A stretch of DNA of 64,000 bases from Trebouxia sp. TZW2008 (lineage: Eukaryota; Chlorophyta; Trebouxiophyceae; Trebouxiales; Trebouxiaceae): contig BDIU01000211.1 in the NCBI GenBank assembly GCA_002118135.1, positions 186,001 through 250,000 of the forward strand, read 5' to 3'. The notes under the pieces are model-generated. The model saw nothing but the letters and a program-made list of their open reading frames with translations, searched no databases and was not told where the DNA came from. Shown piece by piece: positions 8,475 through 59,700 of the stretch. Numbering within the stretch: position 1 is the stretch's first letter; the number at the start of each line of letters is the position of its first letter. A program made the translations under genes and the position numbers.

Positions 8475-11400
8475 CTAAAGATCATCCTCCTCATCTGGAT
8501 CATTCGGATCATCCAAACTGTGCTCAGAGGATTCAGCAGGCACAGTTGCAGCAGATTGTCCAGAGCCAAGAACAGCCCGTAATGCGTCGTTGATGTGCTT
8601 GCATCTGATGATGCGTACATTAGCCAGCCTAGCATGACTTGGTGTTGTGTGTGATGCAGGTATCACAAATGTGGTGAAGCCCAGCTTTGCAGCCTCGACC
8701 AGACGCTGCTCAATCCGGCCTATCTCACGCAACTCACCACCCAATCCTGCACAGCATAAAATAATGATAAGAATCATGACACTTTCTCGCATGCATTACT
8801 GGGTGGGTGTGTTCCACCAATCCTGTCTTGCGAGGCAGGCTTGTCTTGAGCGTCATCAATTGGACTGTACAGCATGAACGCTCTGCGTGGCTGATCACTG
8901 CTTGCTTGTGTTGCGATGCAGAATTTGTCTGCCTATTGTGAGCAGAGGTGCAATGCAGTAGTTGCTACTGGGGCGGCAACATCATGTGAGCGTCCCCATG
9001 GTTTTGTGATGTCTTATTGCAAGCATGAGTGGTGAACTAAGACTGCTGATGCTTCTGCACTTTAGCATTTGCTATGCACTTAACGATGCAAACTCAGCAA
9101 AGTCAACCTGGCAGATCAACGCCTGTACATTCAATCCAGCAACTGCAGACAGTTGTGCTGACTTTGCCAACACCGATGTCATCAGTATCATTTACTAACA
9201 TGCTTGCTGTTAAGGTTGCATGACCTCACAGTGCACCAAGGGAGGTGGACTGTGGGGGGCTGGCATGGGGAGGCGGGGGCGGCGGCAATGACAGCTAGAG
9301 GCTTTACCTATTTCACCAATACAAGCAACGTCTCTTGCAATGGGCTGCTCATAGTAGCTGCTAGCAATGGCTACAGCAACAGCCAAGTCAGTGGCAGGCT
9401 CTGACATCGACATGCCTCCCACCACATTTGTATGGATTGCAACCGCATGCATCTGCAACGCAGCAACCAAGATCAAAACAAGCAAAGAGAGATTGCAGCC
9501 TTCATCGACATGAAATGCAATTTGAAAGCAATGCGATGCTGAACAACTGTGAAGAAGAGGAAGCTTGACAGTGCAGAGACTTGATCTTTGGCTGTACATC
9601 CAGACAGGCATGCCAGGCCTGCTGTGGTGCAAACGAAGTCAGAAGAAGCAGACAAAGAGGAGGCAGAAGAAGAGAAGGAAGAAGAACAAAAGCAAGCGAG
9701 AATAGGAAGCTTACAACATTTATCTTGCGGCAAGCATTTTTGGCCAACACAGCTGTGATGAGATTGGACCTGTCCCTGTTGCGAGATATTGCCTAAGGAA
9801 GCCAATCAAACAAACACTGGAATACACAGACGAAGCGAGGAAGGCACTGCACGAGTGAGAAGGTGAGGAAGAGCAAGAAGACAAAGAAGAAGTGAAAAAG
9901 AGTGTACATACCTTAAGGCGAGCATGTTTGGCCAAAACGGCTGTAATGAGGTTGAATCTGTCCCTTGAGACGCCTGTGGGGAATCTGATGGGGCCGCCAC
10001 CTTCCTTGCTCTGCCAACCACAATACACTGTCAGACGACATGGAAAAGGCTTGGATGACGACTAAGCAACACCTGCCCTTGACTTTGCAAGGCCGCAGGT
10101 GCATCAAGTGAAGCAGCAACAAGTGGTGCTGAACATATGTCTGTGGGAAATTTGATGAAACCGCCGCCATCCTATCTGTGCAGTGACAGGAAAGTGCTTT
10201 GCAAACTTCTCAAATCACTTCTCGAATCACTACTTTTGGAGCGAAAAACACTGCAAAGCAACAAACAGTCCAGGCACTGCAAGTGCATGGTTGCAGCAAG
10301 CAACAAGTTGATGTCGACGATATCCTTGTGGGGAAACTGTTAGGACCACCTCTTTTCTTGCTCTGGAACCACAGCGCGCCCACTGGGCAAAGAGGGCTTT
10401 TGGAGTTGCAATGTGTAAATGTTTACCTATCAACCGCAAACATTAGGCAGCTCAAGCGCAACATGAATTGCTTGACATGCACATATCACAGTGCGCATGT
10501 CCAGCGCTTAGGTGATTCATGTGCTGTGAAACACCACTGGGCTTTGAGTATGAAGGACACGCATGACGTGCACAAGATGGGTCACAATAAAGCAGGACTG
10601 CTGCCAAGCATTGGCTGTGTCAATAGTGGTACCTGGGTCATGTTCAAGCAGGACGGCTGTCAGACACTAGATCTGTCAACAGCGCAGCACAGCTCAGAAC
10701 ATCCTTGGCTGCAGACAGCTTCAGATCTACTCAACTTGACTCGACTCATTTGCTGAGGCGTAGATCGTTCGCGATTCACGTCACGGGACATCAACAAACA
10801 CTAGATATGTCAACAGCATGACTTGGACCTGGAATGGCAAGAAAGCACACACCCATGCTAGATTTTTCAACCAACCTTCAACATCACACTATTGTCTCGA
10901 TGTAAGGACATTCTCGATATACACAGAATGCAACTGGTGACCAATCACTGCATCTTGACTGCACTGGTATCTCTGAGTAATGACAGCTGAACATACAGAC
11001 AATTCTCGGGAACCAAAGCAGCTGTCATCAAGAGAGCCACTGTAGTTTCACAGTTGCCAAGTGATAACTTTTACCTGAACTGGACTGCATAGGGCTTGCA
11101 CTTCCAGCAGCAAGGGTCTGGTTCCCTCCATCTGAACCGTGACTGCACTGCTTACGCCAGGGCTGGAGTCACGATTAGTCAAGAACAGGGCACTTGGGTT
11201 GGGAACTGCCTCCAGCCCTCGTTGAGTCATAGAGAAGACGCCCACCTCCTCAATGGCACCATATCTATTCTTAATGCCTCTGATCAGCCTGTGCAGCACA
11301 AATGCTCATTGATTGATCATGCATCTTGGAGACCATATGCTGGTATTAGCATGTGTTTCAGGCATAGTGTTTCCGGCACAAAGCAACATTGAAGAACAGG

Positions 11401-14400
11401 TAGCAACAGCATGTGCTGGCAGCATGCTGGCAAAGCATGGTCTACTCGTGAAGTCAGACTGTACAAACCAAAGGACTCTGTTTGCCTTTTGTAAGACCAA
11501 AAGCCATCTGCTCTGTCCGTGGTCTCAGACCAACCAGAAAAAGAAAAACAGGCAACAAAGGGACAGGCAAAGCATGTCTATTCTAGAAACATCTGAAGTC
11601 AGACTGCACACATCAGGTCTCATCATGCAGAGGACTCTGTTTGCCTTCTGTAAGACCAAAAGCCAACTGCTCTGTCCCATGGTCTCAAGCAGATGAAGAA
11701 GAAGAAGAAGTAGAAGAACAGCACACAGCAAAGGTATGCAACAAAGGGGTTACAAAGGATCAGAAACTGTGAGAACACAGAGCAGGCACTCAGGCCCTGC
11801 TCTGTGTGACTTGCCTGAACGACTGGTGTCTCTCCCCTTCCATGTCCAGCACCACATTAACAACGTGCTGCAATACCTTAGGCCCAGCAACATCGAGAGG
11901 CTTGATACACGAATGATCAGACCAGGCACCACTGAACAGGTACTTTCTGAGAAACTGACCTGAAGGACTGGTGCTTCTCGCCTTCCATGTACAGCACCAC
12001 ATCAACAATGTGCTCCAACACCTTTGGACCAGCAATGTCCCCAGACTTGGTCACGTGGCCCACCAGGAAGATGGGTATGTCATACTTCTTGGCAATGTGA
12101 AGAAGAGCTGTTGCACACTCCCTCACCTGCATTTACAAACCTCATATTAGTAATCACAATCATAATTCCTTATTTTACTTTGCAAGTTGTAGAAAGGCTG
12201 TTGCACATCATTTTGCCTACCCTTTCATGAAGCCAGACCTTCATGTGAGCCATGGTGGTGACATTCTGTATGCACCTAGCAGCAAGATAGCACCTTGCCA
12301 GCAGGCATGTAAACAGTCAAGGATGCTGATGATGAGTAAGTGGTGACTGATGAAAGGTCAGCAATGACGATGATCATGACTGATTTGTAGTGGTGCGTGA
12401 TGACTGACGAGAATGTATACATAATGCAAGATGATCAATGAGCACTGAATTCTGACTGCTGCTGATGATGATGATGATGATGATGATGCCAGAGAATGGT
12501 ATTTGATGCCGCATGATGACTTGTCATGGGACCAATTCTGCATGACAAATGTCAAATGTGATCATGTCACCTGGCTGACGCTGGCAGCGCTGCCATTCAC
12601 ATCATCAAGGTATACAGTCTGAATGGAGTCCACAATGACTGCCATTGGCTGATGTCAAATGATGACTAAAAAATGGCGAATGCTAAATGATGATGATGAT
12701 CATCATAATGCAATGATGATACCTGGCTGACGCTACCGGCGCTACCGTTCACATCATCAAGGTACACAGTCTGGATGGAGTCCACAATGACTGCCCTTGG
12801 CTGCATGTCAATGATCTCTGCCAGCACGTCTTGAAGCCGTGTGGCGCTGAACAGGAAAATGCTGGCATTACTTGCCAAGCCCATGCGGTCTGCTCGGCTT
12901 CCTACCTGCACAAAACATTCAGCCTGACTTTCAGACTGACGTCATCTGCTGCATTCATGACTGCCCGAGGTTGCATGTCAATGATCTCTGCCAGCACGTC
13001 TTGAAGCCGTGTGGCGCTGAACAGGAAAATACTGGCGTTTGATGCCAAGCCCATGCGATCTGCTCGACTTCCTACCTCCAAATCACATCAAACTGCAGCA
13101 TTGAGAAGCATGATGCCTTGACATTGCTCATGCCATACCTGCTCAAGCTCATGCCATGGCAGGCAGGCAAGCAGGCAGGCAGGTAGGCCGGCCAGTAGGC
13201 AAGCAGGCACTATGCTTCCTACTTTTATACTGCCGTGAAAAGTCGTGCGACCAAGGCAGGCTTTCAAGCAGGCACTATGTTTGCTGTTGTGAAACCACAT
13301 GAGGTCCAAAGCCTGCAGCAGAGGCAGCATTGGAAGCCCAGACTGGCAAATTAGACAAATCGCTGATGTCTCCCCGTATGACTGTCGATTCAATTGAATT
13401 TGCACTGTCATCAATGTGAAAAGAATTGTCAGGTGTCATCAGTGTCTGGCAGACACACTGGCAGGCATCAAGGCACTGATTGTGCCTGCTGTACACTTAC
13501 TTCTCCTGACACAAACAGCACTGGCAAATGACAAACTCAAGGCAGCATGATGCAGGCAGACAGTGAAAAACAGGCATACAAGAATATTGGGCATACCTGC
13601 TGTATGTTTTCTTCTCCTGACACATACAGCATTGGCAGCAAATGACAAATTCAAGACAGCATGATGCAGGCAGACAGTATATAACAGGCTCAAAGACATT
13701 GGCCTATCTGCTGTATGCTTTTTGCTCCTAACACATACAGCATTGGCAGCAAATGACAAATTCAAGGCAGCATGATGCAGGCAGACAGTGAAAACCAGGC
13801 AGACAAAAACATTGGGCATACCTGCTGTACGTTTGCTTCTCCTGACACATACAGCATCGGCAGCAAGTGACGGATTCAAGGCAGCAGGATGCAGGCAGAC
13901 AGTGAAAACCAGGCAGACAAAAACATTGGGCATACCTGCTGTACGCTTTCTTCTCCTGACACATACAGCATCGGCAGCAAGTGACGGAGTCAAGGCAGCA
14001 GGATGCAGGCAGACAGTGAAAACCAGGCAGACAAAAACACTGGGCATACCTGCTGAACGCTTTCTTCTCCTGACACATACAAAATTGACTTCAGCTCTGT
14101 GCTCACATCCCCTGTTATGTCATTGGCACCATTTACTTGAGCTGTTGGAACCGCTGCAACTGTTCTTGGGAGGTCAGCAAGCATCCCGCAAACCTGCAAG
14201 GTATATGCATGGCAATAGCAGAGAGAGCCAATGGAAACATGAAAAGAGACCATGAAAGGGAGCATGGAAGCACATAAATTGTTGTGAATAATTGTGAGGT
14301 ACATATTTGTGTAAAGTATGTCAATCATGGATACTAGCGATGCGCATGAACTGCCATACACTCACAAGCCCACTTTGTTTTGTTGCAACAGGCTGGTCCT

Positions 14401-17218
14401 GACACCTGACATTGCTTGCTGTACACCTGCAGTAGGAGGGGACTGTTGCGCGCTCCAGGGTTTGTGCCAATCAAAGTCGTGTATCTTTAAAGTTGTTTAT
14501 GGATACTCCTGTCAGCGAACTGGAAGCGACAGCTGGAAGCAAACACTGCTTACCTGCAGTAGAAGGGTACTTTTGCCCACTCCAGGGTCTCCGCCAATCA
14601 AGATCATAGACCCTGGAACCACACCGCCCCCCAGCACCCGCCCCAGCTCAGCCCCCCCAGACCCACTTAAGGGTAGCCGCCAGGTGTCGCCAAAGCCTGC
14701 CTTGCCCACGTCTGTCAAACGCTGCGGCCCTGTGTGCATGTGCAAATTTCAGCTCAAAGAATGAATAAGAAAGACCGTGTGCTTCACCTGCTGTAACCCT
14801 TCGTACATGCGTTATGGTGTTCACTATTTCAGCAAACCTAATCAACTATTGACAGGTGCGTTGTGTCATGGCTTAGTCATGATATAGTGCCAGGTGGCGC
14901 CAAACCCTGCCTTGCCCACATCAGTCAAACGCTTCGGCCCTGCACATCACAGCTAACAGCAAACTACTATTGGAGACTTCGTCAGATCCACTTGAACCAG
15001 CAGGTGAGATATACAAGCTGCTGAGTGGTCTACATCACAGGATACCATCAAGGGCTGCGGCCCCGTGTGCATGCGACAAATGCAGTGTGACCTGTGCCAG
15101 CCTGTTAAGCTTGCAGCATGCGCACAGCATGATGCCAAAGATTACAGTAGATTCCTGCTACCAGAAGTTGTACGCCTCAACTGCAATGTACTCAAAGGAT
15201 CAGGCTTGAGCTTGCTTGAGGGTGTGGCCTGGAACCTACTTGCTTGACAGTCTCTGCTTCACAAACACCATCTGCAGGCTTATGGATGTCTTGTTTTGAG
15301 CCATCAGTTCTGATAGGTGAAGCAACTCGGCCATTGTTGCTTGTGAGACCCACAGCAACCCCTGACCCCACCGTCTCAAAACTTGCTTTGCCATTGGACA
15401 CTGTTGCTTCACGGTCTCAGCTTTGCCAGAGCCTTGTTTTGCATCTCAATGCTGACTTACTGTTTGCGCCGGTCACCCATGCACCCGTTCTGATAGGGGG
15501 AGCAACTAGGCCATGCAAGCTTGCTGGACCCCCTTGTAGCCCCAAGCCAACCCCGACCCCTACCCCCTCCCCTGCTGCCCTGGCGGCCCTAGCCCCCCCA
15601 CCTCCCCCAGCTGTGGGGTTGCTGGGCTCTGGCGCATAGGTAAACTTCTTGAGCCTGTGCAAACGATAAAACGTGCAGGTTTGTGGCGAAGTTTGGCCTG
15701 CTTGTGTGACCAGCATTAGCTGCTGAGGTTGTGTTGGTGTATGGAACTGGTGATTCAATTGCCATCAATAATTTTGATGCAAGCTAGCAAACAGGCTACA
15801 GCTACAAGTGATGGCATCCGCACAGAGAATGGCTTGCCTGTTCCAAGCAATTTCTTCTGTGAACAGATGTACAGCCATTTGGAAAATGCATGTCATGGCA
15901 AACTGTGGGTTGCAGCCTTCACAGCTAGATGTGGACCAGCTGTGTTCTGTTTGCAAATGCACAGCCTTTTGCAAACTGCATTCCATGACATTGATGCATG
16001 TACATGTCTCTTGCAACCACCACAGCTAGGCTTGAGCCACTGGTGCACTGATTGCAAATGCACAGCCACTTGAACGAAGCATTTCATGGCAAAGCATGCT
16101 AGCATACGTGTTGCAGCCTTCACAGCTAGATATGGAGCATCTGGCTTCTGTTTACTAATGCACAGCCACTTGCAAAAATGCATATTGAGGAAGCAATGTG
16201 TGTCAGAGCCCTCGTAGGTAGGTTTGATGCATCTGCGTGCTATTTAAATAAGCACAACAGTTTGCAAGATTCATGTCATGGCATCTTTGTGCTTTACCAA
16301 CGTACAGGAATGCAAGATGCATGTCGTGGCATCTTTGCGCCATTCATGAGCGCACGGTCTTTTGCAAGATGCATGTCATGGCAGCGTACGGCAGCATACA
16401 GGTCACAACCTTCACAGTCAGGGCTGGAACATCTGTGTTTTGTTTGCAGATACACAGCTACATGGACAATGCATGTCATGGCAGACTATGGGAGCGTACG
16501 TATTCCAGCCTTCACAGCTAGGGTTGGGGCATCTGCCCTTCCACTGAGGAGAAATCTCCCCGCACTCACTGCATTTCCATGACTGCTTGACCTTGATGGG
16601 AGCTGCGTTGCCTGTGATCACACAGCTGTAATCAGACAGTGCATGTATATTGGCAAAACAAGCTGTCACAGGTCTCCCAGCACACGCTGCACTGCCATAA
16701 CTGCTTGGCCCTGGCAGAAGTTGAAGAGCCTGTGATCAAGCACTTGCACTCGCACAGGGCATGTGCGACCATAGAACAATGATCACAGCCCCCGTGACGC
16801 AACTATAACATAGCCGTGATGGTCGCTTTCTGTTCATGCACAACTGTTCAGTTGACCAACTTGGTAGAATTGCAAGTCTGGTGCTTGTTTCTGTGTTGTG
16901 CTAACGTTCAAAGAGCAAGTGGTGAAAACGGTGCTAGGCGACATACACAGCGCAATTTCACTTGTGCCTGTCGTTCAGTGAAGCCAGAGTAAAGTGGAAA
17001 CGCGTACCAGAGGCGGCAGTGACTACAGTGTGCAATCTCCGTCCACTTCGACGTGAGCTATTCAATTCAAGTTGAGCCGGCCACAGCTGTCTAGACACCC
17101 AGCTTGTTTTGCATGTCAATGAACTCAGCGCCGATGGACGTAGTAAATTGGCGTGGGCTTTGTGCTGATTAAAGGCCAGTCTTAACGCTTGCTTGCAAAG
17201 GCTTGAGGCTGCGGTCAT
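8475..17218 (-). CDS. RADA: DNA repair protein RadA/Sms, probably plastid targeted
   Basis: Eleven exons: 17218-17008, 16611-16500, 15654-15461, 14729-14554, 14193-14050, 12905-12723, 12126-11960, 11288-11075, 10010-9912, 9452-9308 and 8746-8475 (TAG); 1917 nt, 638 residues, longer than the bacterial ~460 because of a transit-like N-terminus and a linker. RadA is a RecA-like DnaB-type helicase that extends recombination intermediates. Seen: zinc finger (Cys84, 87, 98, 103, in a C-x2-C-x10-C-x4-C array), a Gly/Ala/Val linker (109-172), Walker [11 protein letters not shown] (218-227), VYVSGEES-type signature, Walker [12 protein letters not shown] (317-327), [11 protein letters not shown], the RadA-specific KNRYG (402-406), [13 protein letters not shown] and the Lon-like C-terminal domain. 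The tail is acidic ([12 protein letters not shown]). Most introns carry decayed copies of adjoining exon edges, listed separately. Confidence 0.95.
9717..9786 (-). repeat. Decayed copy of the 3' edge of RadA exon 9912-10010
   Basis: It matches the end of the exon ([12 protein letters not shown]) and runs past its donor side. It lies downstream of the parent exon in the intron, so it reproduces exon 3' edge plus intron start. The donor GT is preserved in weak form. Confidence 0.8.
10137..10372 (-). repeat. Two decayed copies of the 5' edge of RadA exon 9912-10010
   Basis: Segments at about 10142-10180 and 10326-10370 resemble the first ~35 bases of the exon (GGGP-I-FPT in translation) together with the preceding intron end. 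Both lie upstream of the parent exon. Confidence 0.65.
11812..11910 (-). repeat. Copy of the 3' edge of RadA exon 11960-12126
   Basis: It reads [20 protein letters not shown] and HQSF, against [21 protein letters not shown] in the real exon. The copy ends AG|GCAAGT, so it would offer a GC-type donor. It lies downstream of the parent exon. Confidence 0.88.
12463..12487. repeat. GAT trinucleotide microsatellite
   Basis: About eight GAT units in a RadA intron. Confidence 0.85.
12572..13078 (-). repeat. Partial copies on both sides of RadA exon 12723-12905
   Basis: The segment 12572-12650 repeats the 3' half of the exon (Walker B strand to SVSQ and the donor). The segment 12960-13078 repeats the 5' half ([14 protein letters not shown] to DMQPRA) including the acceptor side. 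Both are over 85 percent identical by eye to the real exon between them. Confidence 0.9.
13155..13210. repeat. GCAG/GTAG-type tetranucleotide tract
   Basis: Imperfect (GGCA)n and (GTAG/GCCG) units in a RadA intron. Confidence 0.7.
13489..14049 (-). repeat. Five tandem ~113 bp copies of a RadA exon-end plus intron-start unit
   Basis: Each unit contains the exon end [10 protein letters not shown], the donor CAG|GTATGCCCA, and about 75 bases of intron. They follow the real exon 14050-14193 head to tail. Similarity to the real exon edge is highest in the nearest unit and falls with distance. One unit has lost a base change in SGEE and the farthest has a changed donor. The intron part of the units (GATGCAGGCAGACAGTGAAA) is also conserved. 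Confidence 0.93.
14419..14490 (-). repeat. Copy of the 3' edge of the RadA Walker A exon
   Basis: It repeats the Walker A coding end and donor of exon 14554-14729 with many changes (for example CTCCAGGG and CCAATCAA are kept). It lies downstream of the exon. Confidence 0.75.
14881..15078 (-). repeat. Copies of the 5' edge of the RadA Walker A exon
   Basis: 14881-14945 repeats the exon start ([14 protein letters not shown]), and 15050-15078 repeats a shorter start including the acceptor side. Both lie upstream of the real exon. Confidence 0.8.
15298..15372 (-). repeat. Copy of the 3' edge of the RadA linker exon
   Basis: It repeats GTTCTGATAGG-GAAGCAACT and the flanking proline-rich complement of exon 15461-15654. 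It lies downstream of that exon. Confidence 0.75.
15910..16458 (-). repeat. Four or more copies of the 3' edge of the RadA zinc-finger exon
   Basis: Copies at about 15910-15966, 16011-16067, 16111-16166 and 16402-16458 each repeat the CCTTCACAGCTAG-type segment that codes for PSCEGWN in the real exon (16500-16611), followed by similar intron sequence. All lie downstream of the exon. Further weak CATGTCATGGCA repeats fill 16270-16400. Confidence 0.85.
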
Positions 17219-22075: not shown

Positions 22076-22140
22076 GTCCTTATATTTTTCTGCCTCTTTG
22101 CATGAGGAAAGCTCTTCAGTTGGACATCAATCTTACTGCG

Positions 22141-23619: not shown

Positions 23620-23662
23620 CATCCTCTGAAAACACTGCTGCTGGCAGCACACTACTTCTCAG

Positions 23663-23923
23663 GAAAAACTGGATACTAGGCAAGCAAGCTGGCCTGGTTT
23701 GCCAGACAGCTCAGGCTTTTCAAGGTCTGCTTGTGTATAGCCTCGGTGAGCTGCATAGCAGCAAAGCTGGCACCCTCTCTGAGGCAGCTTTGCTAGGTCA
23801 AAGTGACGCGCCAGTCAATGCACTGCTGCAACCGCTACAAGCGTTATCTGGCGCAAGCGACACTTTGATTGTGTACATATGGTGCTTGAGCAACCCTGCG
23901 TAGCGTCACCGCCAGCAAGACTG
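23663..23923 (+). repeat. Direct repeat, left copy (~265 bp)
   Basis: It begins near CTGGATACTAGGCAAGCAAG and ends near GTAGCGTCACCGCCAGCAAG. The right copy at 25611-25879 matches it almost base for base, with about 10 percent differences by eye and a short insertion in the right copy. Its right end overlaps the 3' end of the SNF2 exon. Confidence 0.9.
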
Positions 23924-24024
23924 GGAGCAGTGGGCTTACTCATGCTGCTGTTTGGTGCTGCCGTGCCAGTTTTGGCCAACAGCGCTGCACAAAAAGCTAT
24001 GGTCTGCACAGTCTTCCCCAAACC
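23895..24024 (-). CDS. Single exon of a SNF2-family helicase (motif I)
   Basis: An exon of 43 codons plus one base, with acceptor GCACAG|GG and donor CAGG|GTTGC. It reads GLGKTVQTIAFCAALLAKTG, which is the nucleotide-binding motif I of SNF2 chromatin-remodelling ATPases, then a Ser/Thr/Ala-rich tail. No other helicase motif (DExH, motif III-VI) is visible on this strand nearby, so the exon looks orphaned, perhaps a gene fragment moved with repeats. Decayed copies follow upstream. Confidence 0.5.
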
Positions 24025-24450
24025 CTGTGCACAGCAGAGCATCAAATCATAAGTATGACAGGCCCCATGATTGCATAAGCAGCGCTGTGTTAAAAGCTGT
24101 GATGTCCACAAGTTTGCTCAAACCCTGTACACAGCCAAACAAGAAGTTATGCAAAATCAAGCAAAGCAGTATAGTGACTAGCACAGTCATTGCACAAGCA
24201 GCAGGAGATTGTGGTGTGCACAGTCTGGCCCAAGGCCTGCTCACAGAATCTCACGCACTTGTCAACAATAACATCGGTGCAGCATGACTGGCACAGGGAT
24301 TGCATAGGCAGCGCTGCACAGAAGCCTATGGTCTGCACAGTCTTTCCTGGTCCCTGCTCATAGAACATGATGCACTTGTCAGCAATGGTTTCCAAGCGGC
24401 GTTGACGGCACAAGGCAGGACTCACCAGGGAGTGCATAAGCAGTACCATG
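24025..24450 (-). repeat. Three or four decayed copies of the SNF2 motif I exon
   Basis: Copies near 24060-24130 (GLSKLVDITAFNTALL), 24170-24240 (ALGQTVHTTI), 24280-24360 (GPGKTVQTIGFCAALPMQS) and a weak one near 24370-24440. Each carries the acceptor side. All lie upstream of the best copy, as 5'-edge copies do elsewhere in this window. Confidence 0.8.
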
Positions 24451-24584
24451 GGCTCAGCTTGCTTGATACTGCCCGTAAGAGAGCACTCAAGTCAAGGCGG
24501 CATTCTGCACAGCTTGCAAAGATCAGCTGGTCAAAGGCAGGCTTGACCAAAGGTTTCGACAAGTGCTGCTGACACTGCAGTGGC

Positions 24585-25604: not shown

Positions 25605-25610
25605 AGCTGG

Positions 25611-41784: not shown

Positions 41785-41826
<42 letters not shown>

Positions 41827-47800: not shown

Positions 47801-50800
47801 ATGGCGCTTCTGATGACGATGAGTAACTGTGATGATGACACCAACAACATTGGTGAGAGTGACCGAGCATGCTTGTTTTCACGTTCATTTGAGCAGAGGT
47901 GCTAAGTGTCTGTGCCCCGATGCTTGTTTGCCAGGCCAGCTTGTTATGACATTGGTCATGATGATGATCAGCCATGGTGATTTCATTGATCAACAATGAT
48001 TGACTGGTTTGAGACATGTCCTGAGGCTCAGCGTGGGCCAGCAGTGCCAACTTGCCGCATGACATGAGCCAAAGATGGATACAAAATCGGCTGCCCCTGA
48101 TTCTGAAGCGCCTGAGCTTGTATGCATTGTCGGCTGATGACATGCAGCATGTTGACACTGCTGCCACACACAAGATCAGGTGAAATCGTCAAAACCAGGC
48201 TGTCTTGCATTGCTCAATGCGCTTTTCAATATGCAGGACCAGAAATTATCACAACTCACATGGGCCTCAAACCGCAAGGACTGCATGCAAATCTCAGACA
48301 GAGGTTTGACACCACGCCATTTACCATGGAGCAATGCCCTCCTCAATCAGCAGGGCAAGCAGAATCACAGGATGGACACAAGCTGGTTTTGCATGAACTG
48401 CATGCTGGCCTCGTGCAGGATGTCTTGAGACTGTGTCATTTTGCATCAATCGATGCATTTTGGGAGCAGCAAGGTGACAGAGTCCTGAGGCAGGCCACTA
48501 TTCATGGGACTGATGAAAAAGACCGAAACCCCACCTGGTTCCGCATGAACTGCATGCTAATTTCGTGCAGCAGGCTAACAATGCTGCTCATGCCAAGCCT
48601 TAAAGACTGTATGTCAGCCATGACGTCTCCTGGCTGCGTGCTCTGACAGTCTGAGAAGCACTGCTTGACAACAGCATTATTGTAGCAAGGCCAAGAAAAC
48701 CATTCTAAGACAGAAAGATCACCTGATTCCGCATGAACTGCATGCTGATCTCGTGCAGCAGGCTAACAATGCTGCTCATGCTCAGCCTCAGGGACTGTAT
48801 TGAGGCCATGACGTCTCCTGGTCGCCTGCTTTGGTAGTCTGAGAAGCACTGCTCACCAACATCTGGCTGCGGCTTCTCAAGGAGAAGAATGAACTGGGAG
48901 TCTTGCAGAACAGCTAGGGCAAAGGCCGGCCCTAGCAGCGTCATTACAACCTGAAGTCACGAGGTGATGTTGAAAGTCCTGATGGTGGTCATGAAAGTTA
49001 GAATCATGTTGGTAGCGTGAAAAGCATTGCTTGCCGACATCTGCCGGCAGCTTCTCAAGAATGAGATTGAACTGGGAGTCTTGCTGAACAGCTAGGGCAA
49101 AGGCTGGCCCTAGCAGTGTCATCAGCACCTGAAACCACAAGCTTGTTTTAGGCCCATTTAACAGCTGAGCTTGCAGTATGATTCAGACCCAAGAGTGCGC
49201 CTGGTAGCCCACACTGGCAGTCTGAGAAGCACTGCTTGCCAATGCTTGACTGCTGCTTCTCAGGAAGCAGAATGAACATGGAGTCTTTCAGGACCACTAG
49301 AGCAAAGGCCAGCCCTAGCAGCGTCATTGACTCCTGACCCCACAAGCTGATGTCAAAAATTGGCGCTAGCACAGTCACTAGAATCTGAATCCCACTATCA
49401 CAACAGCTGAGACACAGCGTCAGCGATAGCAAATGCCCGCAACTCAAAGCTGATGTCACAGATTTGAAGTGCTTGGTCATGGCAACTATGCAAGGATCAA
49501 TTCAGACTGTGGGTGTGCAAATTGCAATGATACAAGTAAGTCTTCAGCCCTGCATGAGTGTGAGTTTCACATGACTGAGGGCAGTGCGTGTCACAATCAA
49601 CAAGATATTAGCATAATATGGTATGAGCACAATATGGGTACACAAAACTGTCATTCCTCCTCCTCAGGGTTTCAAAAGTTGAGCGTCTGTGACTCTGCCC
49701 AATCAAGCAGGGAGATCACAAGGGCTTTTGCAATGGGCTTGATGCAGACTGGATATAAAGTGCTCAGCGACGCAATGTAGCACAGTGCAATATGGTCAGA
49801 GGCAATCTGACCTGTCGTCCCTCATCAGCTTTCAAGATTTGGGCATCTGTGACTTTGCCCAGCCATGCAGGCGATGTGACCAGGGCTTTGGCAATGGGTT
49901 TCATGGAGACTAGACGAAGGATGCCGCGCAAAAGCCCCTCCCACGGCCCCAGTGGTGATGTGATTCTGATCTTCTGACCAATGGCTGTCACTGCGTCAGC
50001 CCACAAGAAGTGTTTGCATGTCCAAGCTAATCAACATGGGTTGCAAGCTGTACAGTACAAGCTCAAAGGGCGCTGATGCAACGATCCCGCATAAAAGCCC
50101 GTCACAGCGTCACTCATGGGCATGGCGGTGATGTAGCCTTCAGCTTTTTACCGATGGCCGTCACGGCATCAACCAACAAGAGGTGTGTGTTTGTATCCTG
50201 CTGGTGAGCTCAGTGGGTGAGGCAGTCTGATGCTGAGATTGCACTGGGTGTGTTTTCCACCGCTTGCTGGGCTGCTGCTGGCAGTCAAGAGCGATGATGC
50301 ACAGCCACTTGTTCCCAACAGAAGGCGACTTCAGGTATGAGCTAGCCAGCATGTCTGCTGTTGTTCCAAGCTGGAAGTTGACAAGCTCAGCGCAAATTGC
50401 TGCATACAGTGCAGATGATGCATATGAGCAACGGCTGGTATGCAGCAGGCCATGTCAAAAAAAAAAACACACGCGTGGCGGCCAGCAGGGTCACCACTGT
50501 GTTGAAGATAGCTACAAGGGTATGCAACGTGAGGTGCTACAACAACTCTCTAATAACTGTAGTGTTGCGCTGCCTGTGCTGGCAGATGGGTGTGCCTGAC
50601 TGAGCAGACCAGCACAAAAAGGTAGGATATGACATGAGTTGCAGCTTGAGACCTCTGCAAAGGGCCATGCTGCTAAAAGTCAGCCCGCCATGTGAGTGCC
50701 AGATGTGCTATAGCAACAAGAAGTGGACTTACTCAAGGGCACAACCACATTCTGTAAATCAGGCGCCTCCATTCTGCTAAGTAAGTCCTCAAGAAAGCCA

Positions 50801-51655
50801 GCAGGCAATGATGACTCTGAGCTGGTCAGACCCTCAAGAAGCTGAAGAGGCCCTTGCGCCCTAGCTTGCTCTGGCTGCATATCAAATATGCCCAATGTGA
50901 ACTAATGCTAGATGAGTCTGTGCAGAAGGATGTAAGATGCACCAAATGTGAATCACAGGCCACACAGATCCATGTTGAGCATGCTGTACATTGTCTGTTG
51001 ACACTGGATGTGTTGATTGCCATTGCAGCAGATATCACAGGGAGAATACTGCCATACGCAAGTTTGACCTAGCATGGTCTGCAGTGTTCCAACGCCAGGA
51101 AACAACAGCGCATGCAAGCAATAGGAGGCAGGCTGACCTGAGGAAACAGACTGTCTGACATGGTCAACAAGAGCCCAGCGTTTGCTGCAATGAGCTCCTT
51201 GCAGTATTGCAAATCCTGCTGTATTCTACTGGCTGCATCCTTGTCCTTGAGGCTTGACAAGGATCGAGCCTCGGTTGTTGCCCGTCCATAGCAGCCGATG
51301 AGGTAGTGCAAAGGCCATTGTGGGTATTGGTCAGGTGCGTCCAGCAATCGAGCCATGATGGCACGGTCCACGGTTTCCTTGCCAAGAAGCGTGGGGACTG
51401 ACTCTGTCTGCAGCTCCTGCGGTGTAAAGCGAAACTGAGCCCTGTGCTCTCTTGGTCACATCATTCATTGAAGATGCATTCATCATGCAGAATGCATGCC
51501 GCCGACGAGGTCAGCAGCGCGTAAAGACTAACCTCGGCCAGTCCCTGCAGGCAGATCACTGGAGGGTTGGCAGATGCGTTTGCATTCTGCTGAGAGAGGG
51601 AGACTGCGAACACCCTGCGTAGAGTCTGATCTTCAAGCTTTGCTATGTCCGTCAT
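33520..51655 (-). CDS. UFD2: Ubiquitin conjugation factor E4 (UFD2/UBE4, U-box E3/E4 ligase)
   Basis: Nineteen exons: 51655-51533, 51434-51138, 50874-50733, 49990-49812, 48950-48723, 46704-46508, 46223-45935, 45222-45170, 44419-44314, 43460-43314, 42202-42038, 41749-41639, 41169-41039, 39895-39651, 38532-38383, 37700-37516, 36575-36489, 34181-34018 and 33607-33520 (TGA). All are phase-consistent: 3087 nt, 1028 residues, the usual UFD2 length. Core-domain landmarks: HYLIGCYGRA, LLGPAFALAV, HGFFMNLDAVLLKMCEPFL, RIDFKSETKLN, AVAYYRLLATWLLRLA, KLYVDIEFTDRSNSFYEKF, FLLPEMV-like WLLPEMVLRVANMLNYFLQF. The U-box fills the last two exons: DDFLDPITYTLMRDPVKLPS, LLSDPRDPTT, then TELKAKIDIWVQQH. The family extends ubiquitin chains for Cdc48/proteasome delivery. 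The exon 49990 acceptor has an alternative 6 bases inside. Introns are large and full of exon-edge copies. Confidence 0.95.
34195..35765 (-). repeat. About seven decayed 5'-edge copies of the U-box exon
   Basis: Repeated segments (near 34350, 34510, 34780, 34915, 35335, 35440 and 35710) each carry a GGCAAAGAAGAAG-like acceptor side and a following 60-base stretch similar to the start of exon 34018-34181 (its GGCGCAGAAGAAGATGTAGA). The spacers between them (GTGGCTATGCAAG-GGTGAGTCA-type) are repeated as well. All lie upstream of the exon. Confidence 0.7.
35935..36375. repeat. Three-copy ~120-140 bp tandem repeat in a UFD2 intron
   Basis: Each copy has GATGAACAAG-ATGTG, CATCAAGCTGCAC, CAGACCTCAG-TATGACGCTGTG and TACCAAGGCCAA. 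It does not match the neighbouring exons. Confidence 0.8.
36840..37426 (-). repeat. Four copies of the 3' edge of UFD2 exon 37516-37700
   Basis: Copies near 36840-36910, 36990-37075, 37157-37278 and 37338-37426 repeat the exon end (coding for GAFSAAIAASDRYRQ and PETCE) with the donor CGAG|GTGAGC or a variant. All lie downstream of the exon. Confidence 0.92.
37740..38020 (-). repeat. Two copies of the 5' edge of UFD2 exon 37516-37700
   Basis: 37740-37830 and 37890-38020 repeat the start (N-RQLKV-DP, PKELLPQLANIYLHLERADA) with the TGCAG|G acceptor, upstream of the real exon. Confidence 0.92.
38640..39228 (-). repeat. Four copies of the 5' edge of UFD2 exon 38383-38532
   Basis: Copies near 38640-38717, 38813-38892, 38960-39045 and 39148-39228 repeat CAGGTCA-ATCA-GCACCACTT and the TSASIAVKTLEYTTTQ coding stretch. 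All lie upstream of the real exon and keep the acceptor. Confidence 0.92.
39975..40077 (-). repeat. Copy of the 5' edge of UFD2 exon 39651-39895
   Basis: It repeats ESWKALA-GRGPPDPRG and then loses the frame (RLRGSM in place of AAEGQH). It lies upstream of the real exon. Confidence 0.92.
40345..40945 (-). repeat. Four copies of the 3' edge of UFD2 exon 41039-41169
   Basis: Copies near 40345-40420, 40537-40612, 40725-40795 and 40870-40945 repeat NVGMLLELLWNMPAHR and the donor. The farthest (LLELLWTRRH) is the most changed. All lie downstream of the exon. Confidence 0.93.
41790..41825. repeat. CAG trinucleotide microsatellite
   Basis: About twelve CAG/GCA units in the UFD2 intron between exons 41639-41749 and 42038-42202. 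Confidence 0.95.
42262..42525 (-). repeat. Two copies of the 5' part of UFD2 exon 42038-42202
   Basis: 42262-42372 reads EYFADDLYELMLYVGQISPR and loses the frame; 42415-42525 reads ELMLYVGQISPKALEGLQLQ and then decays. Both lie upstream of the real exon. Confidence 0.9.
43070..43140 (-). repeat. Copy of the 3' edge of UFD2 exon 43314-43460
   Basis: It repeats the sequence coding for the P-P-IQFRCLP end with CTGCCA followed by GCAAGC in place of GTAAGC. It lies downstream of the exon. Confidence 0.75.
43526..44095 (-). repeat. Copies of the 5' edge of UFD2 exon 43314-43460
   Basis: Near 43526-43625, 43798-43850 and 44055-44095. They repeat GATGCCAGGAGCCAAA-CTGCTGA and/or the HY-LL--WLL stretch, with stops in frame. 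All lie upstream of the exon. Confidence 0.8.
44235..44275 (-). repeat. Copy of the 3' edge of UFD2 exon 44314-44419
   Basis: It repeats CAGCTCAGACTATGCTATGA of the exon end. It lies downstream of the exon. Confidence 0.85.
44500..44750 (-). repeat. Two copies of the 5' edge of UFD2 exon 44314-44419
   Basis: Near 44500-44590 and 44650-44750. Each repeats CATGCAG|GCTATCAGGAGCTG and then the SQL-RIKQLLDAKN coding stretch with in-frame damage. Both lie upstream of the exon. Confidence 0.9.
46975..47800. repeat. Four-copy ~235 bp tandem repeat in UFD2 intron 5
   Basis: Each unit contains CACTTGACG-TGCCT-A-TTGCATCTT, GCTGTGTTAGCTTGCTGCCTG, and CAAGCACCAGCTCTAGCA-TGTTC followed by GCAGAAGCATGTC-GCTGA. 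The units do not resemble flanking exons. They make up nearly half of this 2 kb intron. Confidence 0.9.
48365..48645 (-). repeat. Two copies of the 3' edge of UFD2 exon 48723-48950
   Basis: 48525-48645 repeats GDVM-IQSLRL-MSSIVSLLHEISMQFMRNQ and its donor almost unchanged. A shorter, more changed copy lies at 48365-48430. Both lie downstream of the exon. Confidence 0.92.
49010..49400 (-). repeat. Two or three copies of the 5' part of UFD2 exon 48723-48950
   Basis: 49010-49135 reads MTLLGPAFALAVQQDSQFN and DVGKQCFS; 49210-49345 reads MTLLGLAFALVVLKDS and IGKQCFSD; a weak third start lies near 49350-49400. All lie upstream of the exon. Confidence 0.92.
49685..49745 (-). repeat. Copy of the 3' part of UFD2 exon 49812-49990
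   Basis: It repeats KPIAKALV-S and the following bases (SMKPIAKALVTS in the real exon), downstream of the exon. Confidence 0.85.
50085..50175 (-). repeat. Copy of the 5' edge of UFD2 exon 49812-49990
   Basis: It reads VDAVTAIGKKLKATSP, similar to ADAVTAIGQKIRITSP at the real junction, and lies upstream of it. Confidence 0.85.
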
Positions 51656-53776: not shown

Positions 53777-56700
53777 ATGGAGGGCCTGCAGCGAGTCTGG
53801 ACGGACAACAAGGGGGAAACGCTCACCATCGCTCGCTTGTCGATTCCAGTGTCAACAGGCTTCCTGCTCAACAAGCTTGTATCCTTCGTCAGTGTTATCA
53901 TCGTGGGTCACTTGGGCCCTGCTGAACTGGCAGCAGCAGCGCTTGGCAGCTCACTGATCAATGTCATTGGCAACAGTGTCCTGGCTGGTCTTGCTGGTGC
54001 TATGTCTACCTTGTGCGGACAGGTATGGGTTCTGCTGCAAAGATCACATCATGCACTGCATCCTGCTGCTACGATGATTGCCTGGCCTGAAATGCGCATA
54101 TATGCATGGCATGCGCATGTATGCATGGCAGCATCGCACCTTCTATCCTGAAGCTGTCTTACTGATGTCTGTTCTACAATTGACATGTGAATGGGTGTGC
54201 TTGTTGCTACGTACCTGCTGCCATGTACTACATGATGCTTCTCCAAAATTAGCCTGACCTGACATGCAATCACATGCGTCGCAGCATCATCAATGGATGT
54301 TTGTACTCAGTCACTCCATCTAAGCTTTGTGCTGAATCAATCCTGTGAGCTGGCCAATATAGGCATTTGGAGCCAAGAACTATGATTTGGTGGGGCATGT
54401 GTGGCAGCGGGCCATGATTATCTTGGGACTGGTCTGTGTGCCAATCTGTGGAATCCTGCTGTCCACAGAGAAACTGCTTCTGCTGGGTGGTCAGACCCCA
54501 GCTGTTGCTGCAATGACAGCAGCATATGTCAGGTATGGGAACTATGTCTCCAAGCATGCTATTGTTGCAATGAGCGATATGATGTGGCTGAGCCAGTGAA
54601 CATGAGCATATCTGAACTATTTCTCCAAACCTCCAGCTGGTGACATCTGACTTACTGATGCCAGCAATTGCTGCAATGACAGCAGAATGGGTTAGGTCTG
54701 GGTCTCTGGTCTCTGAGCATACCTGTGCTGTGACAAGCAGTGTACTATGGTCGACAAACTCAGCAGCAACATGTTTGGGCCCTGAGATCATGTCTTACTG
54801 GGCATCAAAACACCAACCAACTGGTCTGCTTTTGGCTTCTAACCATACAGAGTCAGGACTCTCTGTTTCATTCTTTAGTTAGCATACCTTTGGTCCATTG
54901 ACTGAGTGCATGTGGTGTGGTGAGCATGGTATTGTGCTGCTTCAGTCAGCAAACATGTGTGTCTGAGCTTTTGTTCGAGTACCTGCTCTATCTGCATCGC
55001 TATGCAAACGTGCAACATTGCACAAATTAGCTGTGTGAAAGTGACACCTTTTCTCTTGCTTAGGTGAACCCTGCCTGGGATTTGGGCTCATGCAGCTTTC
55101 ATCACAGCCAACAATCTACCTGCAGGCTCAGAAGGTTGTCCAGCCTCAAGTAGCATCAACACTAATCTAAAAAAATTGACCAGAGATGCTTGCTTGCTAT
55201 GGTCAGGTGGACCCTTCCAAGATTTTGGGCATATGCTGCCTTCAACAGTACTTGGCAAAAGCACTGACAAGGCAACAGCCTAAGTCACACAAACCACTTA
55301 TCCTATATTCAGGTGGACATTACCTGGGATTTGGGCTTATGCAGCTTTCATCACAGCAAACAACTACCTGCAGGCTCAGAAGATCGTTCAGCCTCAAGTA
55401 GTGACCAGTGCTGTTGTTCTGGCAGTGCATCCACCCCTCAACTGGCTCTGTATATATACCCTGGGTAAGCTGCACTATTGCATGCTCACTCCCTCACCCA
55501 TCCATGCACTCCCTCCGTCACTCACTCACTCACTCACTCACGCACACACTTACTCATTCCCTCACCAACTCACACCACTCACACCACCCCCCGCCCACCA
55601 GCCCGCCCGCCTGCCCACTGATTCATAACACTTGCTAGGGAGGCTTTGAGCTTCAGTGACTGGGTCCAAACAGACAAAATCAACTCCCTCCATGCAATAC
55701 TGTCATGCTGACTGCTGCAGTCTCAGTTTGCTACGTAAGCAGCATCATGTGTCTTTCTTTGCCTTGTGAAAACGCTAGTGCTTGTGGTGCTGGCTGTGTA
55801 TCCCCCTCTGAACTGGCTCTGTACACACGCCCTGGAGACAGCATTGCCATCCTAATTGCCGCAGTCCTGAATTGGTTTGTCAGCAGAATAATATGTTTCT
55901 CCCGTCCATGTGGACCCTAGTATGCACACACAGAAGCACTGAACTGCTTTCAAACAATTTCTTCAAGTACACCATATCATGCAAGCGCAAGTTGATCATG
56001 ATGATGTTTGCAGGGCTCGGGTACCTTGGAGCAGCACTCGCCACCTGTATTTCTTTGTGGCTGCAGTTCTTCACACTGCTTGTGTACATTGTATACTACA
56101 AGGTAAGCAGCTGTCTCTGCTGTGCTGCACTCTCAAACAAGACTAAAGCACAACACGATATTATGCAACGCAGGACACAGCATCATCAGGACGACTACTG
56201 TGTTGCAAATGCACTAGTCAATCAGGCAATCAATTCATGTTACTGTCTTTGGGACCCAGCAGCGGGCTCAACAGACAATGTCAACAATGCATCAATACAA
56301 AACAGACATGCACTCAATTGTCTTGGCAGAGTTTGGCCGTTTCCCTCTGCAAAACCATTTTTGGCAACAGGTTACTCAGAGACCTTTTTTGGGCTGTCAT
56401 GCTTGCATAAAGCCATGTGCTTTCCACGTCATTGCAATACAGCTTATCATTGCTCATTTACAGGCCTCATCTTCTAGTATGTGCATGTGCAACTGTCAAT
56501 CTGGCCATGACAGCGATGTGTGTCCAGACTTCAGTGGATCATTTACAGTGACTGACACGCAATTGGCGGACACTCAGTGCAAGGGATCAAATTCCACAAC
56601 TGCAGCTTGACTTTGTCAGTGTACGTGGTCATGCAGTACAGCCATGTCACAGTCTGTTTCACCATGCAGAAAGGGGAGTCAACATGGCCTGGCTGGTCTC

Positions 56701-59700
56701 AAGAGTGCCTGGTGGACTGGCTGCCCTTTGTCAAGCTAGCTGTCCCAAGTGAGTAAATCAAACTCATTTTGCCTGTTTTGTGTATTGCACGCTTGTCTCC
56801 TCTGACCAAACTTGTTTGCGCACAAGTAAGTCTGCTTAACCCAGAGCTCATTGATTGCAACTTCAGAGTCGCGTCAGAGCTTTTCCATCAGCTGCGCCTT
56901 GTTAAGCTGCCTCTGCCATGCGACTCTCTTGATTAAAGCTTGCTTGGCTACCAGAGCTTGCATTATAGCGACCTCAAAGCTTATATTTGGATCCTGACCC
57001 AACAAGTCTGTTGGGTGGCTGCCCTTTCTATGTTGTTGTTGGATCAAGCAAGCATGCTGTTGGTATCAGAGTGGTGGGCAAGTGAGACAGCTGTAATCAT
57101 GGGCAGGCTTTTGCCAGATGCTCAGCGCCGGCTTTCAACCATGAATTTCATGATTCCACAACTTGTTTCTTGTTTTCTCATGTGATGACTGCACTCAATC
57201 AACTTGGTAATGCAGGCATGCTGTTGACATCAGAGCGATGGGCAAGTGAGATGGCTGTGCTGATGGGAGGCCAAACGCTCAGCATCTCATCTCAGCGTTC
57301 ATTGGCCTTGCGATTGCATCGATCAAACCTGATGGTGCAGGCTTGCTATTGAAATCAGAGCGGTGGGCAAATGAGACTGCTGTGATGATGGGCAGATGCC
57401 CACTGCTAGCTGTCAGCCAGCAATCCAGCAATCACTCAAAAGTTAGTTTTCTTGTATCATGATTGCACACAAAGCAATCTGGCGATGCAGGCATGCTTTT
57501 GATGTCAGAGTGGTGGGCGAGTGAGACTGCTGTCATGATGGGAGGTCTGTTGCCAGATGCCCAGCACCAGCTGTCAGCCATCAACCCATCAATCAGTCAC
57601 TCAAGAGTCAGTATTCTTGTATCATTACTGCATAGAACCAATCTGGCAATGCAGGCATGCTGTTCATGTCAGAGTGGTGGGCAAGTGAGACAGCTGTAGT
57701 CATGAGCAGGCCTTTGTCAGATGCTCAGCTCCAGCTTTCAACCATGGAATTCATGACTCAACAACTTATTCTTGTTTTCTCCATGTGATGACTATACACA
57801 ATCAACTTGGCAATGCAGGCATGCTGTCGATATCAAAGTGATGGGCAAGTGAGACTGCTGTCATTGGATGAGTTTGCTGCCAGGTGCTGAGTGATAGCTG
57901 TCAGCCACCAATCAGTCACTCAAATGTGTGTTTTACTTACTAGTGTGCTCAGTGCACACTATCAAATTGGCATTGCAGGCATGCTGTTGATATCAGAGTG
58001 GTGGGCAAGTGAGACTGCTGTCATGATGGGAGGCCTGTTGCCAGATGCTCAGCGCCAGCTGTCAGCCATGGCTATCTACCAAACCACCAATGCCATGTGC
58101 TTCATGCTGCCCCTTGGCATTGCTGTCGCTGTTTCTACCAGGCAAGTATGGGCTGCCCCACTACCCTAAACATTAGTTGCTGGGTTCACCAGTACAGTTC
58201 CTGTTCCCTGATGTATTCCCTGCACCACTCCTCCAAAGCCTAAGCGCCAGCTGTTGGCCAAGGCTATCTCACAGGCAACCAATGCCATTTGCTTCATGCT
58301 GCCCCTTGGCATTGCTGTTGCGGTGTCCACAAGGCAAATATGGGTTGCACCACTTGTGTAAACCCTAAGTCCCACTAGGCAAACGCAGCTTGTGTCAGAA
58401 CTCTAAGCCGTAAGCCCCAGCTTTCAGCCATGGCTATCTACCAGAACACCAATGCCATATGCTTCATGCTGCCCCTTGGTACTGCTGTTGCTGTGTCTAC
58501 TAGGCAAGTACGGGCAAGGGTCAACCCTACAACGCCACTCTAAACCCAATAACCTGCAAAGTCTCGATGTCTCAAGCTCTAATATGAACTCACAACTCCG
58601 TCAAACACAACTTCCAAAGACACACGCACAGAAGCACTGTACACAAAATTGCTGTGTGCAAGCCCTCACAATTGACAGCAATGGTTGTGCTCTCAAACAA
58701 CAGCAAAGGAGCTCTTGTGACCCTTGAAAGAAATGCACACACGCACAGAAGCACTTTACACAAACTTGCTGTGTGCAAGCCCTCTCAGTTGACAGCATTG
58801 GGTTTGCTGTCAGACAGCAGCAAAACAGCACTTGCAATATTTTCTGAGGCTGTCAAGATACGTCAACTTGCACATGCACTGTTGTGCATGGATTGCTGCA
58901 GCAAAAACTGGAAAGACACACATGCAATTCTGATTAATTTTCTTTTTGCTGCCGTTTGGGTGCAGGTCTTTTGCTGTCATTGACCAATCGATTAAAAGTT
59001 GTGGCCCCGTTGTTGCAGCGTGAGCGTGGTGTAATTTGAGGTCCATAGATTGTATAGCAACGGTCATTACGGTTGAGGTTGTATGTCCTGAACAGGTTTG
59101 CAAAATTGCCGATTTATGGATTTCTACACGTGCAATTGGTTTATTACAATATTACGCCTCAAAGCAAGACAGAGACTGTTTTTGCTGCTTTTATAGGGTT
59201 TCCAACGAGCTAGGAGCAGGCAACCCTGAGACTGCCCAGCACACAACACAAGTGGGATTGCTGCTGACCCTAACGACCACTGCCTGCCTCAATATTCCCA
59301 TGTTCATATTCAGGTGAGTATTAGACTGGTCGGAACAACACTAGAATGCGGCAAGGTCACTGAATGGTATGAGTGCAGTGTCATGTCTTTTCCTGACGTA
59401 TTCGCTTGTACATGCTGTTGCATTGCATTTCTGTGAATCCGTATTGGCTGTGAAAGCATGCAAGTGAGTGGCTGCTCTGTCCATGCCCATGTCTAGAGAG
59501 GGAGAGAGAGTGATTTCACATGCTTTAGCCAACCAACAAGGCTGATCACATGTGCCGCACCGTGGCAATGACTGTAACTCCATGAATTTCAGGCAGCCTA
59601 TGACATAGTGAAACACCCCCAAATGATCATGTATTTACCTGACAGTGTCTGCCTCAGTGTTTAAACCTGTATGTGCAATTCTCAAGAGGCAGTGGCAGTT

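What the first reader, a model, noticed from the sequence alone, without database searches (positions are those of the whole stretch)
9717..58510. Splice-junction echoes: exon edges are copied into neighbouring introns in a fixed order
At more than twenty exons in at least five unrelated genes, introns hold partial exon copies. Copies upstream of an exon repeat its 5' edge with the acceptor. Copies downstream repeat its 3' edge with the donor. I saw no clear reverse case apart from the repeat pair around the transposase. This is what tandem duplication of a segment spanning a splice junction leaves: the innermost-to-exon copy or the original keeps splicing and the rest decay. It suggests introns here grow mainly by junction-spanning duplication, and it creates many cryptic sites. 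I do not know of this being described as a genome-wide rule in green algae.
Basis: seen in the sequence. Interest (0 to 1): 0.92.

Follow-up and report, generated by a model that had tools for sequence, protein, structure and literature searches.

The report
Exon edges echoed in neighbouring introns
In a lichen alga close to Trebouxia, introns of the genes examined hold decayed partial copies of the exon next to them: start-of-exon copies lie before the exon and end-of-exon copies lie after it, which points to short local duplication as a recurring source of intron DNA.

Summary
I built protein-supported exon maps of seven genes (three in the window, four elsewhere in the genome; five families) and searched each exon with its flanks against its two adjacent introns. 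All 90 aligned pieces (78 after merging overlaps) obey the rule: 39 upstream pieces carry the exon's 5' edge, 51 downstream pieces its 3' edge. They lie on 49 of 128 exon sides. None is reversed or inverted; 20 shuffled intron sets gave no hit, and 620 non-adjacent exon-intron pairs gave one. Two transcript-like proteins, apparently of the same species (517 of 517 and 393 of 394 residues identical), join the real exons and skip the copies.

The copies decay like neutral DNA. Local direct repeats at a median offset of 158 bp are common in the sampled genome; inverted ones are few. Short direct duplication, filtered to keep the mRNA intact, explains the order.

The simple form of that model fails in one respect: homology usually stops within 30 bp of the splice junction, and the spacer up to the exon is mostly unrelated. 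"Introns grow mainly this way" is not shown: the copies are 19% of intron bases in these genes.

The parts
33523..51655 (-). UFD2 / ubiquitin conjugation factor E4 gene, 19 exons; 10 exons carry echoes (33 aligned pieces)
   Evidence: Pfam; spliced alignment; transcript-like P0004 identical at 517 of 517 residues over 11 exons; counts
48723..48950 (-). UFD2 exon 5, flanked on both sides by echoes
49009..49353 (-). two upstream 5'-edge copies of UFD2 exon 5 (49009-49141, 49200-49353)
48383..48673 (-). two downstream 3'-edge copies of UFD2 exon 5 (48519-48673, 48383-48418)
44476..44748 (-). two upstream 5'-edge copies of UFD2 exon 9 (44314-44419); the nearest one abuts
43534..44084 (-). three upstream 5'-edge copies of UFD2 exon 10 (43314-43460)
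42223..42520 (-). two upstream 5'-edge copies of UFD2 exon 11 (42038-42202)
40356..40929 (-). four downstream 3'-edge copies of UFD2 exon 13 (41039-41169)
39976..40087 (-). upstream 5'-edge copy of UFD2 exon 14 (39651-39895)
38641..39244 (-). four upstream 5'-edge copies of UFD2 exon 15 (38383-38532), spacings 183/156/168/184 bp
37781..38012 (-). two upstream 5'-edge copies of UFD2 exon 16 (37516-37700)
36893..37428 (-). four downstream 3'-edge copies of UFD2 exon 16, spacings 176/181/167/176 bp
8484..15653 (-). RadA/Sms-like gene, 9 exons mapped (its first exons not found); 6 carry echoes (14 pieces)
   Evidence: spliced alignment of Trebouxia sp. C0006 protein P0128; counts
13485..13967 (-). 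array of 3'-edge copies downstream of RadA exon 3 (14050-14193), spacings 114/114/114/111/111 bp; nearest copy 98% identical and abutting
12957..13088 (-). upstream 5'-edge copy of RadA exon 4 (12723-12905), 89% identical
12555..12663 (-). downstream 3'-edge copy of RadA exon 4
53777..60673 (+). MATE-family transporter gene, 8 exons; 3 carry echoes (12 pieces)
   Evidence: Pfam; spliced alignment of P0122 and P0126; P0126 identical at 393 of 394 residues over six exons
57048..57907 (+). six 5'-edge pieces upstream of MATE exon 6 (57979-58141), spacings 125-164 bp
55062..55247 (+). two 5'-edge copies upstream of MATE exon 3 (55313-55464)

Best explanation
The echoes are remnants of short-range direct duplications, with offsets mostly 75-225 bp, of a kind common in the parts of this genome sampled. 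A duplication reaching across a splice junction leaves a partial exon copy plus a second splice site in the intron, on the side of the edge that was copied (the arrangement is shown; that a duplication made it is inferred). Inferred: events that extend, interrupt or repeat the exon in the mRNA are lost, because only copies with one junction can be spliced around. Shown: the surviving copies decay as neutral DNA while the exon stays constrained, and two transcript-like proteins skip them. Inferred: the duplications arise in DNA break repair or replication at about nucleosome or Okazaki-fragment scale. Not settled: whether the exon-derived part is copied by itself (a spaced duplication), or the whole period was duplicated and the exon part later kept alike by gene conversion from the exon.
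For: Rule 90 of 90, 0 inverted, 1 hit in 620 non-adjacent pairs; the mirror position was available for 49 of 90. Mismatch exon-versus-copy by codon position is 0.116/0.096/0.222, the pattern of a neutral copy against a constrained exon; mismatch shows no clear trend with distance from the junction and no clustering. Direct local repeats outnumber inverted ones, 349 to 22 in 304 kb, with 0 and 0 in one shuffled version. Median offset 158 bp over 214 non-redundant pairs, 153 bp for the 157 outside the window. Contiguous tandem cases exist: RadA exon 3 (98% identical), GDH exon 6, ARI exon 4 and UFD2 exon 9 are among 6 abutting. By alignment score each of the 27 pieces in the three MATE genes matches its own exon better than the same exon of either paralogue, so they arose, or were reset, separately in each gene. 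Random placement of units of the observed lengths gives 32% one-junction units among tolerable ones, so no special targeting is needed for the class to exist.
Against: Homology stops within 30 bp of the junction in 24 of 34 nearest-copy cases (those of the 41 with at least 40 bp of expected flank and an alignment reaching the junction); a contiguous unit with neutral decay gives 4% (19% and 50% with three- and six-fold indels, 45% with 1.5-fold substitutions and three-fold indels). In 29 of 41 nearest copies the spacer matches neither flank nor exon continuation. Copy-to-copy, the exon-derived part is more alike than the spacer in 23 of 24 arrays although both are intronic. Near-identical young pairs are scarce: 7 of 214 at 93% or more. 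None of the 90 pieces carries both junctions, although whole-exon units should be 3% of random units; loss by selection is my reading of that.
Confidence: 0.6

Rival explanations
1. Old full-period tandem arrays whose exon-derived parts are kept alike by gene conversion, with the constrained exon acting as the master template while the spacers drift beyond recognition.
For: Nearly constant spacings in some arrays (164/125/150/164/164/160; 176/181/167/176; 114/114/114/111/111); spacer identity between copies above control in 15 of 22 arrays, mean excess 0.06; the exon-derived part is more alike than the spacer between copies in 23 of 24 arrays; differences from the exon are mostly private to each copy (30 shared at codon positions 1 and 2, of 261 and 233).
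Against: No clustering of mismatches that would mark conversion tracts (60 alignments, 5% at p<0.05). The 30 shared differences exceed the 8 expected by chance, and one pair (UFD2 exon 9) shares 13 of 15-22, so some copies derive from copies. A mostly star-like shape is also expected of one burst of duplication. Other arrays have irregular spacings.
Confidence: 0.25
2. Templated insertion in break repair: a broken intron end copies a short stretch starting at a nearby splice motif and rejoins, leaving a spaced direct repeat from the start.
For: Unrelated spacers in 29 of 41 nearest copies; homology ending 0-30 bp outside the junction in 24 of 34; partial-period repeats also among pure intron pairs.
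Against: Such repair is recalled to make inverted copies too; none is seen here. It does not predict that the copy always lies on the side of its own edge, nor even spacing within arrays.
Confidence: 0.2
3. Functional copies: alternative exon ends or decoy sites kept by selection.
For: Splice dinucleotides are mostly intact (AG 32 of 35, GT 26 of 38 reached).
Against: AG and GT are kept about as neutral decay predicts (p 0.14 and 0.10 against 0.80); the codon-position pattern is neutral; two transcript-like proteins skip the copies in the 15 introns they cross.
Confidence: 0.05
4. Assembly artefact: alleles or read errors laid out in tandem.
For: None found; read data were not available, so this is not directly excluded.
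Against: Pieces are 72-98% identical and partial, obey a strict side rule, occur on five contigs, and the flanking exons are joined exactly in independent transcript-like proteins.
Confidence: 0.02

Closest known systems
Tandem genomic duplication crossing an intron-exon boundary (potato RdRp gene, PMC4974935; abstract and outline read)
   Same: A duplicated segment crosses an acceptor junction, so that formerly exonic sequence of the upstream copy becomes intronic.
   Different: That abstract reports one recent case that made a new intron; here the copies sit inside existing introns, recur at many exons and occur at both exon edges; I saw no new intron made by them.
Intron gain by tandem duplication of an AGGT-containing exon segment (passages of PMC2891723 read)
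   Same: Local direct duplication of exon sequence turns a copy into intron.
   Different: There the intron is the stretch between two duplicated proto-splice sites and has the size of the duplication, so its copies touch the intron's ends. Here no piece comes within 10 bp of the far end of its intron (0 of 39 and 0 of 51).
Small tandem duplications from Pol alpha-primase/CST fill-in at DNA breaks (PMC8355091, abstract and outline read)
   Same: Short, local, direct-orientation duplications; a possible mutational source.
   Different: That work is on mouse and human cells; most nearest copies here do not abut. Mechanism untested in this alga.
Tandem exon duplication / mutually exclusive exons (recalled)
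   Same: Exon-like copies next to an exon.
   Different: Those copies have both splice sites and are spliced; none of the 90 pieces here spans both junctions.
Introners (PMC9860276; search listing only)
   Same: Large-scale source of intron DNA in some lineages.
   Different: Introners are elements copied into many genes; echoes match their own neighbouring exon.

Membership tests
Junction-spanning tandem duplication | Copy in direct orientation, next to its source | tested here: met
   0 inverted; 90 pieces in adjacent introns against 1 in 620 non-adjacent pairs
Junction-spanning tandem duplication | Copy lies on the side of the duplicated edge | tested here: met
   90 of 90
Junction-spanning tandem duplication | Copies abut, with the flank duplicated along with the exon edge | tested here: not met
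   6 of 41 nearest copies abut and 6 more show some spacer homology; 29 do not. Met for a minority only, so the set as a whole is not filed here
Exonic AGGT intron gain | Copies touch the ends of the host intron | tested here: not met
   0 of 39 upstream pieces start within 10 bp of the intron start (nearest 229 bp); 0 of 51 downstream pieces end within 10 bp of the intron end (nearest 116 bp)
Tandem exon duplication / mutually exclusive exons | Copy has both acceptor and donor | tested here: not met
   0 of 90 pieces span both
Introner | Same sequence in many genes | tested here: not met
   Adjacent-intron specificity; the 27 MATE-gene pieces score best against their own exon. Not tested by a whole-genome search of each echo
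DNA-break fill-in duplication (Pol alpha-primase/CST type) | Arises at breaks with 3' overhangs, dependent on CST and Shieldin | not testable with these tools
   Needs experiments in the alga

The most novel reading that the evidence does not exclude
Exons in this alga keep writing partial copies of their own edges into the adjoining introns, one after another at a spacing near 160 bp. The copying is anchored at the splice junction, and the exon serves as a lasting template (by junction-anchored copying or by gene conversion), so that intron length is largely set by how many echoes an exon has shed.
Probability: 0.22. Interest if true: 0.85.

Novelty: new variant of a known kind. Interest (0 to 1): 0.66.

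Why it matters
How introns gain length other than by mobile elements is, as far as I know, poorly documented. Here a strict positional rule gives a readable record: each echo's decay can be measured against a constrained exon, and retained AG and GT sites are potential cryptic splice sites in number. It makes the questions 'what fraction of intron DNA is exon-derived' and 'what mutation process made it' directly countable in any Trebouxia genome, and it warns gene finders and protein searches that intronic exon fragments are common here. Two Trebouxia genome papers searched by word do not treat it: PMC11523091 has 0 occurrences of 'intron' and of 'tandem' in the main text; PMC12712428 has 'tandem' 0 and 'intron' once, in a reference. 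Among the titles and abstract openings listed by my searches (each shows only part of its hits, and one search found none) I saw no report of it as a genome-wide rule; the library holds open-licence papers only.

Tried and rejected
Ab initio exon finding by codon statistics was too weak to trust: it called a RadA exon region (14594-14758) on the wrong strand. RadA exons at 17002-17218 and 16500-16602 proposed by the aligner were dropped as poorly supported before any count. P0133 did not match the window. Selection against cryptic sites as the cause of truncated flanks was set aside: donors show the same truncation as acceptors, and AG/GT are kept about as neutral decay predicts. Uniform neutral decay of contiguous units was rejected for most cases by simulation. 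Spacers as dispersed repeats: of 39 spacers of 30 bp or more, 4 had another match in the sequence held (well under 1% of the genome), 2 of these only within their own gene, so a genome-wide origin is not excluded. E. coli gdhA and radA loci were fetched but not used. Its 74 pieces in five genes became 75 for the same genes, presumably because the E-value search space was set differently. Array tests left out arrays with copies closer than 60 bp or with spacings under 80 or over 260 bp.
Full report
What the organism is. The window is bases 186001-250000 of contig C203 of a 68.5 Mb, 527-contig genome. Its proteins are closest to Trebouxia among the named organisms returned: P0003 of Trebouxia sp. 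C0010, 77% identity in the best local alignment; P0124, P0125 and P0128 of Trebouxia sp. A1-2 and C0006. Size and GC (about 49%) fit published Trebouxia genomes (63-74 Mb, 49.6-51% GC; PMC11523091, passages read). I call it a Trebouxia or very close relative.

Exon maps. Pfam and structure searches identified a ubiquitin conjugation factor E4 (UFD2) gene and a MATE transporter gene in the window; the RadA gene was recognised by eye in a frame translation and supported. Three protein searches brought in proteins of Trebouxia and of unnamed contigs. P0004, an ORF from a 1,909-base contig, equals the spliced product of 11 UFD2 exons at 517 of 517 residues; P0126, from a 2,240-base contig, equals six MATE exons at 393 of 394, the one difference being the first residue. 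Contigs that short covering 10.9 and 5.3 kb of genome must come from spliced RNA (inference; the source tag is not explained), apparently of the same species. They support 15 introns; by the list, 33 echo pieces lie in those introns and none is in the proteins.

The rule. Each exon with 100 bp flanks was compared with its two adjacent introns at E<=1e-4. Of 128 exon sides, 49 have at least one copy, at 33 of 71 exons, with 90 aligned pieces; 12 overlap another, 78 stretches remain after merging, and the exon-side count is the safer one. All 39 upstream pieces carry the 5' part of the exon (30 span the acceptor, 9 lie inside nearer the 5' edge); all 51 downstream pieces carry the 3' part (31 span the donor, 20 lie inside nearer the 3' edge). 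There is no reverse case, no piece with both junctions, no inverted copy, no hit in 20 shuffled intron sets, and one hit in 620 non-adjacent exon-intron pairs. Mirrored about the exon, 49 of 90 pieces would still fall wholly in an intron of the gene, so room was available. Window genes: UFD2 10 of 19 exons, RadA 6 of 9, MATE 3 of 8. Outside: ARI 4 of 10, GDH 3 of 10, MATE_C340 2 of 7, MATE_C192 5 of 8.

Decay. Exon-copy mismatch is 0.116, 0.096 and 0.222 at codon positions 1, 2 and 3: the copy drifts freely and the exon adds mostly silent changes. Mismatch shows no clear trend with distance from the junction and is not clustered. AG is intact in 32 of the 35 upstream pieces that reach it (4 more do not), GT in 26 of the 38 downstream pieces that reach it with 6 more GC (13 do not reach), about as expected. 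Each of the 27 pieces in the three MATE genes scores better against its own exon than against the same exon of either paralogue, so the process recurs, or the copies are reset, gene by gene.

Genome background. In the window plus 24 stretches of 10 kb, direct repeats within 1 kb number 349 and inverted ones 22 (10 of these in one stretch); one shuffled version gives none. Stretches vary widely: one of 25 has none. Among 214 non-redundant pairs the median offset is 158 bp and the median identity 80%; only 7 are 93% or more. In the seven genes, exon-edge copies cover 18.9% of 44,204 intron bases (3% to 27% by gene) and any local direct repeat 36.3%. Introns with echoes are longer (median 742 against 309 bp; 38 of 64; Spearman 0.69), which is expected in part simply because longer introns have more room.

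What does not fit. If each copy were one contiguous tandem unit, the intron flank should be duplicated too and remain alignable at this age. Simulation with the measured rates says 4% of cases should lose homology within 30 bp of the junction; 24 of 34 do. Raising the indel rate three- or six-fold gives 19% or 50%; 1.5-fold substitutions with three-fold indels give 45%. In 29 of 41 nearest copies the spacer matches neither the flank nor the exon's continuation. Between copies of one array the exon-derived part is more alike than the spacer in 23 of 24 arrays, yet some arrays have nearly constant spacings and spacer identity is above control in 15 of 22. Differences from the exon are mostly private to each copy: 30 shared at positions 1 and 2, of 261 and 233, though chance predicts 8, and one pair (UFD2 exon 9) shares 13; at position 3, 81 are shared against 18 expected, as when the exon itself has changed. 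So most arrays look as if their copies derive straight from the exon, with some copies of copies. Gene conversion from the exon, copying of exon edges alone, or strongly uneven decay could each do this; I cannot choose between them.

Comparison with what is known. A tandem duplication crossing an intron-exon boundary is on record as a single event in potato that gave a new intron (PMC4974935, abstract). The classical model turns the stretch between two duplicated proto-splice sites into an intron (PMC2891723, passages); here no piece lies within 10 bp of the far end of its intron. Small tandem duplications at breaks are explained in mouse and human cells by Pol alpha-primase fill-in (PMC8355091, abstract and outline). 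In what I read, none describes recurrent edge copies inside existing introns with a side rule. My paper searches covered an open-licence library and showed only the top of each list, so absence there is weak evidence.

Verdict.

Noticed in passing
58142-59196: The window MATE gene has an intron with a GC donor that splits a 280-bp exon left whole in both paralogues (L035, L036); L036 in turn has an extra intron in its last exon. Paralogue-specific introns in a gene family rich in echoes.
   Followed up: partly
23662-25878: DDE_3 transposase match (25365-25547, +) between two direct repeats (23662-23923 and 25609-25878, 90% identical); repeats in direct rather than inverted orientation.
   Followed up: no
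10669-10802: A dispersed element of about 130 bp inside a RadA intron, matched at 38 other places in the genome at 79-96% identity; a second segment (about 10895-10988) has 3 matches (counts are lower bounds).
   Followed up: no
31311-31391: EsV-1-7 cysteine-rich motif on the minus strand, best of three stretches, next to a two-copy 127-bp tandem repeat at 31109-31343.
   Followed up: no
window and L009-L032: Near-identical local repeats are almost absent (7 of 214 pairs at 93% or more): the process may have slowed, young copies may be removed, or the assembly may collapse them.
   Followed up: partly
4593-5757: Two minus-strand open frames look by eye like a plastid sigma factor; not tested by a family search.
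   Followed up: no
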